Shown here in pieces: positions 28,509 to 33,829 of a stretch of 64,000 nucleotides of DNA; positions within the stretch are counted from its first letter, which is position 1, and each line of letters begins with the position of its first letter. The position numbers were made by a program, and so were the translations under genes. This stretch comes from Akkermansia muciniphila (GTDB taxonomy: Bacteria; Verrucomicrobiota; Verrucomicrobiia; Verrucomicrobiales; V1-33), in NCBI GenBank assembly GCA_945861415.1, contig CAMAUV010000008.1, forward strand, positions 1-64,000, written 5' to 3'. The notes under the pieces are model-generated. The model saw only the letters and a program-made list of their open reading frames with translations. It did no database searches and had not been told where the DNA came from.

Positions 28509-28763
28509 ATGCTTTCACCTTCCTGCCCCGACGATGGCTGCATTTGCAAGCCGCTAACCTCCGCCCGAAGGGGCGATCGGGTGGTGGTCAGGCACTTGCA
28601 AGGCGCGGAGGCTGACCGCACGCGGCTTCGGGAAATGGGAATCCGCGAAGAAGTAGAAGTCCACATGGTTTGCGGAGGCGGACCGGTGATTGCCCACGTG
28701 CAAGGCGCGAAAGTTTGCCTTAGCGTGCGCTTGGCTGAGACCATCCTTGTGGCCCCGGCCTGA
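28509..28763 (+). CDS. feoA: FeoA-domain protein, first copy
   Basis: 84 residues, one SH3-like FeoA domain. Conserved features are GDRVVVRHLQG, DRTRLREMGIREEVEVHMVCGGGPVIAHVQGAKVCL in the usual order, and a final LVAP. The first 18 residues contain a Cys-rich CPDDGCICK that is not part of the core and could bind metal. FeoA assists the FeoB ferrous iron transporter, probably by binding it. It is the first gene of the feo operon; the next gene starts 4 bases after the stop. The ATG 28509 start is the natural one. Confidence 0.88.
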   Translation: MLSPSCPDDGCICKPLTSARRGDRVVVRHLQGAEADRTRLREMGIREEVEVHMVCGGGPVIAHVQGAKVCLSVRLAETILVAPA

Positions 28764-28767
28764 CGGC

Positions 28768-29004
28768 ATGAAACGCACGCGCCTTTCCGACCTCAAGCCC
28801 GGAGCTCGGGCTGTCATCGCCAGCCTGCCGGAAGGCATCCCTAGCCTGACGCGGATCCGTGAATTGGGCCTGCTGCCCGGCACACGAGTGCAATTTGTTC
28901 GCCGTGCCCCGCTGGGAGATCCTGTGGAAATCTGTGTACGGGGTGCTTTGCTCTCGCTGCGCGACAGCGAGGCCATACACATTGAAGTTGACCCCCTGCC
29001 ATGA
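28768..29004 (+). CDS. feoA: FeoA-domain protein, second copy
   Basis: 78 residues from ATG 28768 (MKRTRLSDLKPGARAVIASLP), a second SH3-like FeoA domain: LTRIRELGLLPGTRVQFVRRAPLGDPVEICVRGALLSLRDSEA shows the family ELGLxPG and GDPxxxxVRG segments. It is closer to the standard FeoA than the first copy. Its stop overlaps the feoB start by four bases (ATGA at 29001-29004), indicating translational coupling. Two separate feoA genes before feoB suggest one helper for each of two contacts, but this is inference. Confidence 0.9.
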   Translation: MKRTRLSDLKPGARAVIASLPEGIPSLTRIRELGLLPGTRVQFVRRAPLGDPVEICVRGALLSLRDSEAIHIEVDPLP

Positions 29005-31127
29005 CCGCAACCACGATGCTCACCCCACTCAAGGAAGGCATGGTCTACGCTCTGGTAGGGAATCCCAACTGTGGGAAAACCACACTGTTCAATGCCCTCA
29101 CTGGCCTCAAGCAGCGCGTGGGCAACTACCCGGGGGTGACGGTGGAGCGAAAGGAGGGTGAGTGCTTTTCGCAACACGGCGTGCGGCTGAAAGTGATCGA
29201 CTTGCCCGGTGCCTACAGCCTCAACGCCCGCTCGCCGGACGAAGCCATTCTGCGCGATGTCCTGCTCGGCCGCCGAAAAGACACCCCTCGGCCGGACCGC
29301 ATCATTTGCGTGGTAGATGCCTCCAATCTGGAGCGCAATCTCTACCTCTTCACTCAGATCCTTGAGTTGGGCGTTCCCTGCATTCTCGTGCTCAATATGG
29401 TGGATGTGGCGGAGAAAGCCGGGACGCGATTTGATATCGACAGGCTCTCCGATAGGTTCGGCATGCCGGTTATCCCGATGGTGGCGAGTCAAAAGAAGGG
29501 GCTGGTGGAATTAAAAATGGCCATGAGCCGCCCTGATCTCACGGCACCCAAACCGCTCCTTGATGCCATGCCCGTGCCTATACGCGGAGCGCTCGTGCGC
29601 AGCCGGGAAAATCTGGCCACGTCGGGCATCGTCAGCGCCACGGCCTCCCCGCTGGAGCCGCTTTATCTAATTTCCGGCCACGATCCCACGCATTACGGGA
29701 TCGAAGCCTCGGCGGTGAAGGCCATAGAGCAGGCCCGCGAACAGGTGGAGCGTGAAATCCCCGGATGGGAAGATCGTCTGGTGGCAGCCCGCTACGATGC
29801 CATTCACGCGGCTCTCGACGGCATTATCCGGCGTCCGGACAATGCCTCTGCGACGCTCACCGACAAACTCGACACTTTTCTGCTCCACAAATTCTGGGGC
29901 TGGCTCACGCTCGTGAGCACTCTCGGGTTTCTCTTCTACCTGATCTTCTCCGTGGTGGAAATCCCGGTGGGCTGGATCGAGGGACGCTTTGAGTGGCTCA
30001 ATGATATAGTGAAGGGCTGGATGGCCGATGGCGATCTGCGCGGTCTCATTACCGATGGAATTCTTGCGGGTGTGAGCGGAGTTCTGGTCTTCCTTCCACA
30101 GATTCTCATCCTGTTTTTCTTCATCGGGTTCATGGAGGACACGGGCTATATGGCCCGAATTGCCTTTCTAATGGACCGCATCATGAGCCGCGTAGGACTC
30201 ACAGGGAAAAGCTTTCTGCCGCTGCTAGGCTCGCACGCCTGTGCAGTGCCCGGCGTCATGGCCACGCGAACGATTGAGAGTCCGCGGGACAGGCTCATCA
30301 CCATCCTCGTATCCCCGCTCGCAGCGTGTTCGGCCCGACTTCCGGTGTATCTGCTGCTCATTGCGGCTCTAGTACCCGGTGAAATGGTGCCGCCACTGAC
30401 TAAAGCCAGCATTTTACTCGGGCTCTATGCGATGGGCATCATCGGGGCTTTTCTCTTTGCCTGGCTATTCAACAAGAAACTTCTTCCCGGCGCTCCTTCG
30501 GCCATGATCCTCGAGCTACCGGCATATAAGCTGCCCGCTTTGGGCAACATCGTGCGCCAAATGTGGAGCCGCGCGTGGATGTTCATCCGACGTGCGGGCA
30601 CTGTCATCATGGGGTTGAGCATTCTTCTTTGGGCGCTGCTCACCTATCCCAAACTGGGGGCTGATCCTGCAAAACCTCTCAGCGAAGCAGCGTTTAAGTC
30701 CGCTGCGCTTGAGCACAGTCTTGGCGGAAGACTCGGCCAGGCGATTGAGCCCGTCGTACGGCCCATGGGTGGCGACTGGAAGATCGGAGTAGGCTTAATC
30801 GCATCCTTTGCCGCTCGCGAAGTTTTCGGGAGCACCCTCGGCATCATCTACAGCGTCGAGGAAACCGAGGATGAGGATGAAAGCCAAACCCGCCTGCGTG
30901 ACCGACTCGCCCTAGAAAAACACCCCGACGGAAGGCCTGTCTATACCCCCGGCCTTTGCGTGGCGCTGCTTGTCTTCTTCGTCTTTGCAATGCAGTGCCT
31001 AAGCACCGTCGCCGTCGTGCGCCGGGAGACACAAAGCTGGAAGTGGCCCCTCTTCCAGCTAGCCTATATGACCGGAACCGGCTACCTGCTGGCAGTGGCC
31101 GTGTTTCAAGTGTCGAAGCTGTTTTAG
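29001..31127 (+). CDS. feoB: Ferrous iron transporter FeoB
   Basis: 708 residues. An N-terminal G domain has G1 GNPNCGKTTLF (from residue 20), G3 DLPGAYSLN and G4 LNMVDV. A helical insertion follows, then Gate-type transmembrane regions (about 300-705) with the FMEDTGYMARIAFLMDR and LPLLGSHACAVPGVMATR signatures characteristic of FeoB. It imports Fe(II) across the inner membrane. Translation overlaps feoA by four bases. No feoC is seen. The C-terminal region has an acidic loop (EETEDEDESQ) between the last gate segment and the terminal helices. Confidence 0.97.
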   Translation: MTATTMLTPLKEGMVYALVGNPNCGKTTLFNALTGLKQRVGNYPGVTVERKEGECFSQHGVRLKVIDLPGAYSLNARSPDEAILRDVLLGRRKDTPRPDRIICVVDASNLERNLYLFTQILELGVPCILVLNMVDVAEKAGTRFDIDRLSDRFGMPVIPMVASQKKGLVELKMAMSRPDLTAPKPLLDAMPVPIRGALVRSRENLATSGIVSATASPLEPLYLISGHDPTHYGIEASAVKAIEQAREQVEREIPGWEDRLVAARYDAIHAALDGIIRRPDNASATLTDKLDTFLLHKFWGWLTLVSTLGFLFYLIFSVVEIPVGWIEGRFEWLNDIVKGWMADGDLRGLITDGILAGVSGVLVFLPQILILFFFIGFMEDTGYMARIAFLMDRIMSRVGLTGKSFLPLLGSHACAVPGVMATRTIESPRDRLITILVSPLAACSARLPVYLLLIAALVPGEMVPPLTKASILLGLYAMGIIGAFLFAWLFNKKLLPGAPSAMILELPAYKLPALGNIVRQMWSRAWMFIRRAGTVIMGLSILLWALLTYPKLGADPAKPLSEAAFKSAALEHSLGGRLGQAIEPVVRPMGGDWKIGVGLIASFAAREVFGSTLGIIYSVEETEDEDESQTRLRDRLALEKHPDGRPVYTPGLCVALLVFFVFAMQCLSTVAVVRRETQSWKWPLFQLAYMTGTGYLLAVAVFQVSKLF

Positions 31128-31146
31128 CCCTGCCCGCCCGGAGGGC

Positions 31147-32700
31147 TTACCTGACTACATAGTCGGACGGAGCAGTAAGCTGAGGCTGGACGCGCTTTTC
31201 CCAGATGTAGCGGCGGAAGAGAACCTTGAGTGAGGCCGTGAGCGGCACCGCAAGCAGGGCCCCCAGCAATCCGCCGATGAGGAGAGACCAGAACAACACG
31301 CTGAAAATCACCGTCAGGGGATGTAGTCCCACCGCGTCTCCCACGATACGGGGAGCGGTGACAAGAGAATTTAATTTCTGCACCAAAACAAAGATCACTG
31401 TGACGATCACCGGATAGGCCCACACTTCCTGGATGCCCCACAGAGTATTCACCAACTGACCTTCCTTTGTGATACCGAAGTGGGAAATTGATATGCCGAC
31501 TGCGGCAAACCAGCAGATCACATTGCCAACATAGGGAATGAGACCGAGCATCGCCACAAAAACACCAATAAGCATGGCGTAGGGTAGTCCGATCAACGCC
31601 AGACTCACACCGACGAGTAGCCCATCAATCATGCTCACTAGCATCTGCCCCCGGAAGAACGCGATGAGGTATCCATTGATATCACTGAGCACATCGACCA
31701 GTTCAGCCTTGAATCGGGAGGCGCGTAGAGGAATGTAGTGGCTCCAACCCTGCTTGATAGCCGCGCTCTCCTTGAGGAAGTAATAGAGGTAGAGTGGAAC
31801 GAGGACAAATCCGACAAGGTAGCCGAACAATCCGACAAACCCCTGAAAGCTACGGCTTAGCCCGCCACTGATTCTCGCGGCCACTTCGCTTCCATTAACA
31901 GCAATCCATGAGTTTACCTTCGCCCGCACCCACGATTCCTTCGACCGGCTAACGGCATCCGGAGCCTTTGCTTCCAGAGGCAGGGAAAGAATGAGACCTG
32001 GAGCGAAGGTCCGGCCGGTATTGCCATTCTGTAGGGCTTCGGCCGGGATTGAATAATGTTCGGCGATGCTGGCTATGGTTTCTCCAGATTTGACCGTGTG
32101 CGCTCTTAGCTCTTTCGACGGGATCGGCGTAGTGGCAGGATCACTTTTTTTCGCCGGCGACTGGCCCTTGATGCGTTCCACCAGACGATCCACACTTTCG
32201 ATAGTGTCGCTGACAAAGCTGGAAACACTGCTCACCAGTTCCCCCCGCTTCTCGGGACTTAAATACTGACCTGCGCTGCGAATTGTTGGCACGGCCACCG
32301 AGAGAAAGAGCAGCAGCAGAATCCCATGAAAGCTGACCCACACCCATATCATGGCACGAAAGCGAGGGGTGCCGCGGGCGGTCAGTTTTTTCACCAGCGG
32401 CTCCAGTAGATAAGCGAGAATACCAGCGAAAGCGATGGGCACCAGCACCGGCTGCAAAAACTGAAGCACATCCGTAAAGATGCCGACAGAATAGACGATT
32501 ACTGCAGCGACAGCCAGCATCGACACGGCCGTAACCGCCATCCACAGCATGCGACGCTGAAATTCATTGGGGTAATCCTTTTTGGGGGGAGTGGCGTCGG
32601 AGAGTCCGGTCTTCACAGGCAGTTGGTATATTGCACGCGGGGGTGTAGCACTTGACACTGCACTGGCAAGGCACACTTTGCCCTTCAATCTGTAGCTCAC
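31147..32700 (-). CDS. AI-2E-family transporter with an inserted LysM domain
   Basis: 517 residues (a GTG at 32616 is an alternative start that drops 28 unconserved residues). The PF01594-type core is clear: N-terminal helices at about 52-70, 80-100 and 117-137, and the C-terminal block FVLVPLYLYYFLKESA, LIAFFRGQMLVSMIDG, GLIPYVGNVICW, LHPLTVIFSVLFWSLLIGG. Between helix 3 and the core lies a long loop with a full LysM repeat at about 201-242 (HTVKSGETIASIAEHYSI followed by LQNGNTGR and PGLILSLPL). With this topology the loop is extracytoplasmic, so LysM could hold the transporter to peptidoglycan. Family members include TqsA-like exporters and Na+/H+ antiporters; the substrate here is unknown. 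It is convergent with feoB. Confidence 0.9.
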   Translation of the reverse strand: MSYRLKGKVCLASAVSSATPPRAIYQLPVKTGLSDATPPKKDYPNEFQRRMLWMAVTAVSMLAVAAVIVYSVGIFTDVLQFLQPVLVPIAFAGILAYLLEPLVKKLTARGTPRFRAMIWVWVSFHGILLLLFLSVAVPTIRSAGQYLSPEKRGELVSSVSSFVSDTIESVDRLVERIKGQSPAKKSDPATTPIPSKELRAHTVKSGETIASIAEHYSIPAEALQNGNTGRTFAPGLILSLPLEAKAPDAVSRSKESWVRAKVNSWIAVNGSEVAARISGGLSRSFQGFVGLFGYLVGFVLVPLYLYYFLKESAAIKQGWSHYIPLRASRFKAELVDVLSDINGYLIAFFRGQMLVSMIDGLLVGVSLALIGLPYAMLIGVFVAMLGLIPYVGNVICWFAAVGISISHFGITKEGQLVNTLWGIQEVWAYPVIVTVIFVLVQKLNSLVTAPRIVGDAVGLHPLTVIFSVLFWSLLIGGLLGALLAVPLTASLKVLFRRYIWEKRVQPQLTAPSDYVVR

Positions 32701-32794
32701 TTGCCTGAATCAAAAGACTGATTGTCCGTTGGCCAGTGGCCAACACACAATCGCTACAGTAAGCGATTTGATTGAATCCATCCCTCCGCCGACC

Positions 32795-33829
32795 ATGAAG
32801 TTGCCCGCAATCGCTCTCTCCTTCGCACTCCTGACGGCCTCCCTGGTTGCTCAGGATAAACCTACTCCCGACCACCCCCTCTATGGCACCTACTCACTAT
32901 CATTTGAGAACGACATCATTTCCGAAAAAGATCAGAATTACTCTAATGGCCTGCGCTACAGTTGGACTTCTCCTTCGCTGAGGAAGTTCTCAGAGCAATC
33001 CAGTATGGGGCGGTTTGGGAAATGGCTGGACACCCTACCGTGGCTCGGACTTTACGAATATGAGCGCAACGTTGCCGTTATCCTCGGCCAGGCCATGTAT
33101 ACACCGGCAGACACCAAGACGACCGCGCTCCTGCCGGACGATAGGCCCTACTCGGGCTATCTTTACACGGGCCTCGGGCTGATCTGGAAAAATGATCGCG
33201 TCAGGAATTCCCTAGTGCTGAATTTCGGCGTCGTGGGGCCATGGTCTCTTGCGGAGGAAACGCAAAAGCTGGCTCACGAACTCACCGGTTCCGCCGAAGC
33301 GCTGGGATGGGACAATCAGTTGGGAAATGAACCCCTCATCGCGCTTGCCTACGAACGGATGTGGCGACTGCGGCCAACGACCAGAGACACTGGCTGGGAC
33401 TGGCAGGTCTTTCCCTACGCTGGTTTCACGCTGGGAAATCTCGCCATAAATGTCCGCGCCGGTAGCGAGTTACGCTTCGGATTTAATCTGCCGGACTCCT
33501 ATGGCATGGGATCCATTGATCCCGCCTCCACCACCTCCTCACCTCTCGAAGGGTTTAGCTCCAAACGGTGGCGGCACAGATTCGGTGCCCATCTGTTCAT
33601 TCGCGGAGAGGCCCGGGGGCTTGCCCATGACATCTTTCTGGACGGCAACACATGGCGCGACAGTCACGCCGTGGAGAAGGAACTTTTCGTCTTCGACCTC
33701 TCCGCCGGCCTTTCTTTCAACTGGAGAAACACCTCCATGACTTACTCCCTCGTGCGCCGCTCGCGCGAATTCGAAACGCAGGGGAATGAGCAAATTTTCG
33801 GCTCTGTGACCTTCAACTGGACTTTTTAG
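32795..33829 (+). CDS. LpxR-like lipid A 3'-O-deacylase (DUF2219)
   Basis: 344 residues from ATG 32795, which opens a clean signal peptide (MKLPAIALSFALLTASLVAQ). The family pattern is seen as SFENDIIS with NYSNGL shortly after, FGKWLDTLPW, DRPYSGYLYTGLGL and LGWDNQLGNEP, alternating strands of an outer-membrane beta-barrel, and a terminal aromatic residue (FNWTF) fitting BAM recognition. LpxR removes acyl chains from lipid A at the outer membrane. The catalytic His/Ser positions were not checked residue by residue. The upstream frame from 32729 is non-homologous and rejected. Confidence 0.82.
   Translation: MKLPAIALSFALLTASLVAQDKPTPDHPLYGTYSLSFENDIISEKDQNYSNGLRYSWTSPSLRKFSEQSSMGRFGKWLDTLPWLGLYEYERNVAVILGQAMYTPADTKTTALLPDDRPYSGYLYTGLGLIWKNDRVRNSLVLNFGVVGPWSLAEETQKLAHELTGSAEALGWDNQLGNEPLIALAYERMWRLRPTTRDTGWDWQVFPYAGFTLGNLAINVRAGSELRFGFNLPDSYGMGSIDPASTTSSPLEGFSSKRWRHRFGAHLFIRGEARGLAHDIFLDGNTWRDSHAVEKELFVFDLSAGLSFNWRNTSMTYSLVRRSREFETQGNEQIFGSVTFNWTF

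What the first reader, a model, noticed from the sequence alone, without database searches (positions are those of the whole stretch)
31147..32700. AI-2E-family transporter carrying a LysM peptidoglycan-binding domain
A full LysM repeat (about residues 201-242) lies in the long loop after transmembrane helix 3 of an otherwise normal PF01594 protein. With a cytoplasmic N-terminus and three preceding helices, the loop faces the periplasm. An inner-membrane transporter tied to the cell wall would be an unusual way to fix or gate it. Domains seen in sequence; topology and tethering are inference.
Basis: partly seen in the sequence, partly recalled or inferred. Interest (0 to 1): 0.62.

Follow-up and report, generated by a model that had tools for sequence, protein, structure and literature searches.

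The report
Membrane transporter with cell-wall-binding LysM insert
In one genus of uncultured Verrucomicrobiota, an otherwise ordinary inner-membrane transporter of the AI-2E family has gained a small LysM (cell-wall-binding type) domain in its outward-facing loop, which probably holds the transporter against the cell wall; the combination is real and conserved, but binding is untested.

Summary
The minus-strand gene encodes an AI-2E (PF01594) protein with a LysM domain between transmembrane helices 3 and 4. The conserved GTG start is at 32616, so the protein is 489 aa, not 517. Pfam matches only LysM positions 1-27 of 43, because the stretch before strand 2 is two residues short. A four-species profile still finds LysM domains in the PDB (E 9.9e-9), and the modelled domain is beta-alpha-alpha-beta and lands on solved LysM folds. 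All four species of the genus carry it. No other AI-2E orthologue found does, in surveys of 13 family, 289 order and 388 phylum genomes and 80 named loci; others have a variable linker there. Within the genus the LysM is an island of conservation (about 53% identity, dN/dS about 0.24) between linkers at 13-38%. Charge distribution and a published PhoA fusion on a relative put the loop outside. Best reading: a genus-specific periplasmic LysM that retains or localises the transporter at peptidoglycan, as LysM does in HubP. Peptidoglycan binding, substrate and any gating are untested. Rare variant of known parts; modest interest.

The parts
31147..32616 (-).
   Evidence: PF01594 130.6 bits; homology starts at a conserved GTG/ATG
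32278..32544 (-). Transmembrane helices 1-3, with a Lys/Arg-rich turn between TM2 and TM3
   Evidence: predicted helices, hydropathy and charge
32107..32277 (-). Loop before the LysM: predicted helix (residues 120-150 of the 488-residue model) and a low-confidence linker
   Evidence: helix then pLDDT about 47; 36-38% identity to congeners
31969..32106 (-). LysM domain, RAHTVKSGETIASIAEHYSIPAEALQNGNTGRTFAPGLILSLPLEA
31896..31968 (-). Variable linker after the LysM, leading into the helix that becomes TM4
   Evidence: 13-17% identity to congeners; low confidence at residues 212-223
31150..31895 (-). TM4 to TM8 region and basic C-terminus; the conserved AI-2E core
   Evidence: matches PF01594 and TqsA (7nb6)

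Best explanation
It is an AI-2E family inner-membrane transporter, orthologous across Verrucomicrobiales, into whose variable periplasmic TM3-TM4 loop the ancestor of this genus acquired one LysM domain. Shown here: both domains, the insertion site, restriction to the genus within the sampled phylum, and purifying selection on the LysM. Inferred: the loop faces the periplasm; the LysM binds glycan strands of peptidoglycan through flexible linkers; if the protein forms a pentamer like TqsA, five weak LysM contacts would add up. The result would be retention or positioning of the transporter at cell wall of a given state (for example septal or polar), leaving the transport cycle itself that of an ordinary AI-2E protein. 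The substrate is not known.
For: Domains. LysM fold: pLDDT 85-88 over the domain, beta-alpha-alpha-beta; the listed matches are nearly all LysM domains, including 4uz3, the ligand-bound form of the Thermus LysM pair. Orthologues across the order with a variable linker in place of the LysM. All four congeners have it and nothing else sampled does. Selection. Topology: plus the PhoA-tested cytoplasmic N-terminus of H. andaensis UPF0118 (PMC7221264). TqsA is the only solved relative and its entry holds five chains. Precedent for LysM positioning an inner-membrane protein: HubP, whose periplasmic LysM is necessary and sufficient for polar targeting (PMC8789113).
Against: The LysM is divergent: two residues are missing between the conserved Asn and the Pro-Gly, and the usual PGQ reads PGL, so ligand binding may be altered or lost. 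A single LysM usually binds weakly (general knowledge). The same PhoA study found a periplasmic C-terminus in UPF0118, which disagrees with the basic, inside-looking C-terminus here. The TM region superposes only loosely on TqsA (TM-score 0.36/0.48), so oligomeric state is carried over from a distant relative.
Confidence: 0.6

Rival explanations
1. The LysM is periplasmic and folded but does not bind peptidoglycan; it serves as a stabilising or protein-protein interaction module, or binds another glycan.
For: Shortened stretch before strand 2 and loss of the PGQ motif; sub-threshold Pfam scores in congeners.
Against: The first-half LysM signature and the conserved Asn are kept, and the domain is under purifying selection between less constrained linkers.
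Confidence: 0.22
2. The LysM senses the wall: binding, or wall-membrane distance, alters the elevator-like movement and so gates transport.
For: The insert sits in the loop joining the TM1-3 and TM4-8 parts of the transporter, where a tether could restrain relative movement.
Against: Low-confidence, divergent linkers on both sides would transmit little force, and orthologues do without the domain. No direct evidence.
Confidence: 0.08
3. The TM3-TM4 loop lies in the cytoplasm, so the LysM never meets peptidoglycan.
For: No topology data exist for this protein; reported termini of one family member (C-terminus outside) do not fit the pattern here.
Against: Charge pattern over 29 orthologues, cytoplasmic N-terminus by PhoA in a relative and three preceding helices all put it outside.
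Confidence: 0.06
4. Chance similarity or an assembly or frame artefact.
For: Only half of the Pfam profile matches.
Against: An open frame with the domain is present in four separately assembled genomes, with profile and fold support.
Confidence: 0.02

Closest known systems
AI-2E family (PF01594); TqsA of E. coli, PDB 7nb6
   Same: Same family, helix order and conserved C-terminal core
   Different: TqsA has no LysM and a much shorter TM3-TM4 loop; sequence identity is low (16% in the Foldseek alignment)
Verrucomicrobiales AI-2E orthologues without LysM
   Same: Clear orthologues, 39-63% identical to the window protein, same loop position
   Different: A linker or low-complexity stretch of variable length in place of the LysM; in many of the more distant ones the gene follows nusB-like and ribH-like genes
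LysM domains of Thermus NlpC/P60 endopeptidase, PDB 4uz2/4uz3
   Same: Fold and sequence signature; best profile and structure match
   Different: Those are on a cell-wall endopeptidase with two LysMs and a canonical length before strand 2
HubP of Vibrio cholerae
   Same: Inner-membrane protein with a periplasmic LysM that directs its place in the cell (PMC8789113)
   Different: Single-pass scaffold protein with large acidic cytosolic region, not a transporter; here the LysM is inserted in a loop of a multi-pass protein

Membership tests
AI-2E family (PF01594) | Match above the curated Pfam score | tested here: met
   130.6 bits against 34.3; all 29 aligned orthologues match
AI-2E family (PF01594) | About 8 transmembrane helices with a TqsA-like fold | tested here: met
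   Hydrophobic peaks and predicted helices consistent with 8; the only Foldseek match at E <= 0.001 is 7nb6 (1.2e-6), though superposition is loose
AI-2 exporter (TqsA function) | Export of autoinducer-2 | not testable with these tools
   Needs a transport assay; distant homology to TqsA only
AI-2E Na+(Li+)/H+ antiporter group | Signature residues D251, R292, R293, E296 of motifs C and D (PMC7221264) | tested here: not met
   Compared by eye with the published consensus: motif C DF.PI.G reads GLIPYVG here, motif D RRTVEPKVMG reads SLVTAPRIVG
CxpE chloramphenicol efflux (NF045801) | Score above the equivalog cut-off | tested here: not met
   84 bits against 675
LysM (PF01476) | Match above the curated score | tested here: met
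   23.7 bits against 20.9 for the window protein; congeners 17.5-19.8, below it
LysM (PF01476) | Beta-alpha-alpha-beta fold | tested here: met
   Model E8-11 H18-24 H29-35 E46-49; Foldseek top matches are LysM, best E 3.9e-3, probability 1.00
LysM (PF01476) | Binding to GlcNAc-containing glycans | not testable with these tools
   Needs a binding assay; the shortened stretch before strand 2 makes it uncertain
HubP/FimV-type polar landmark | Single-pass protein with acidic cytosolic repeats and TPR | tested here: not met
   Multi-pass AI-2E protein with only PF01594 and PF01476

The most novel reading that the evidence does not exclude
A multi-pass transporter physically coupled to the peptidoglycan by a loop-inserted LysM, so that wall contact or wall-membrane distance regulates its transport cycle.
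Probability: 0.07. Interest if true: 0.75.

Novelty: new variant of a known kind. Interest (0 to 1): 0.38.

Why it matters
LysM is best known on hydrolases, lipoproteins and single-pass scaffolds. A selected LysM inside a loop of a polytopic transporter would be a natural example of a transporter fixed to, or positioned by, the cell wall. AI-2E proteins are widespread but mostly of unknown substrate, so a wall-linked member hints that some act near wall growth or division sites. A simple LysM-deletion test could decide.

Tried and rejected
Artefact or chance: rejected by conservation in four genomes and profile/fold matches. Start at 32700: rejected for the conserved GTG at 32616. Link with the neighbouring feoAB, LpxR-like or ruvB genes: none of these lies next to the orthologue in the 80 named loci, including three congeners (some contigs are short). 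Borderline hits reaching into the LysM part of the query in other genera (G445, G437, G547, G502, G453, G506): the AI-2E frames were read and have no LysM; for G434 and G439 the reading frame shown was a wrong, opposite-strand-like one, so those two were not checked by eye. Other Pfam domains in long loops of eight orthologues: none above cut-off. M. tuberculosis PerM was considered as a functional parallel and dropped: its papers do not mention AI-2E and homology was not tested. The first genome-contig scan with the single protein found nothing. The TqsA structure paper (EMBO J 2022) is not held.

Full report
What is there. The minus-strand ORF at 31147-32700 is real, but its start is most likely the GTG at 32616. 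Homology to congeners begins there, and relatives carry GTG or ATG at the same place. The product, 489 aa, matches the AI-2E family at 130.6 bits and LysM at 23.7 bits, above the 20.9 cut-off.

Is the LysM real? Pfam aligns only positions 1-27 of 43. The second half is recognisable (N....APGLILSLP), but the stretch between the Asn and the Pro-Gly is two residues shorter than in other LysMs. In the three congeners the score is 17.5-19.8, so automatic annotation would miss it. Independent support is strong: a profile of the four sequences finds LysM structures in the PDB at E 9.9e-9, the isolated domain is predicted as beta-alpha-alpha-beta at pLDDT 85-88, and Foldseek's top matches are LysM domains at about 1.2-2 angstrom rmsd. 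The E-values of that Foldseek search are modest (best 3.9e-3), as expected for 60 residues.

Where it occurs. Nearly all sampled members of the order have an AI-2E orthologue, but only the four species of this genus have the LysM. A LysM-plus-TM4 profile matched end to end (or from position 4) in these four and not in the rest of 13 family, 289 order and 388 phylum genomes. These three sets overlap, and the longest tables were cut. Among the 80 named loci, nearly all titled as Verrucomicrobiota, only the three congeners carry it; a LysM profile run on all retrieved orthologues separates them cleanly (71-74 bits against below 0). In the rest the loop is a linker of variable length, often Pro/Ala-rich. 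The simplest history is one insertion on the stem of the genus into a tolerant loop. The congeners come from metagenome assemblies, one labelled as from a pond; I could not establish a name for the genus.

Is it kept for a reason? Between the window species and its congeners the LysM is 51-53% identical with dN/dS about 0.23-0.26, while the linkers before and after are 36-38% and 13-17% identical. Synonymous sites are near saturation, so the ratio is rough, but the contrast with the flanks is clear. The domain is under purifying selection.

Which side? In 29 orthologues the N-terminus, TM2-TM3 loop, TM4-TM5 loop and C-terminus are rich in Lys/Arg and the TM3-TM4 loop is net acidic on average (10.9 basic, 15.0 acidic; in the window protein itself 18 and 15). 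A PhoA fusion in another family member puts the N-terminus in the cytoplasm (PMC7221264). With three preceding helices this puts the loop in the periplasm. The same study puts that protein's C-terminus outside, which I cannot reconcile with the basic C-terminus here, but it does not bear on the first three helices. This remains inference.

How it most likely works. The transporter part is an ordinary AI-2E protein of unknown substrate. It is outside the published Na+/H+ antiporter signature (motifs C and D not met, compared by eye) and far below the CxpE equivalog cut-off. The LysM sits between low-confidence linkers of roughly 10-20 residues, enough in principle to reach towards the peptidoglycan layer (inference). 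If the protein is pentameric like TqsA, whose PDB entry has five chains and whose structure paper is titled as pentameric (cited in PMC9045395), five weak LysM contacts would give useful avidity (inference). By analogy with HubP, where a periplasmic LysM is necessary and sufficient for polar targeting (PMC8789113), I expect retention or positioning rather than gating.

Is it known? A full-text search for AI-2E together with LysM returned three papers, none of which by title or abstract describes such a fusion (they were not opened). I did not survey other phyla, so the fusion may exist elsewhere. It is a new combination of two well-known parts, conserved in one genus: a new variant of a known kind, of modest interest until binding is shown.

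Noticed in passing
window 28690-33829: The gene is flanked by feoA/feoB (plus strand, feoB ending 19 bases from its stop codon) and a divergent LpxR-type outer-membrane protein gene (PF09982, 329.5 bits). Neither neighbour was found next to the orthologue in 80 named loci.
   Followed up: partly
L041:4004-5587 (same contig as L144): This orthologue has a different, about 170-residue loop at the same place (NYELQIVKDRASLPSKGQNLIAIS...), with no Pfam match; possibly another, unnamed periplasmic insert.
   Followed up: partly
L051, L052, L055, L056, L058 and others: In about 30 of 80 named loci a NusB-like gene lies just upstream of the AI-2E orthologue, often with ribH-like and ribBA-like genes; identified by eye from the sequences, not by profile.
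   Followed up: partly
G000 contigs C30, C32, C44, C53, C75: The genome's other LysM domains sit in open frames of 167-375 residues, one with four LysM copies (C75).
   Followed up: no
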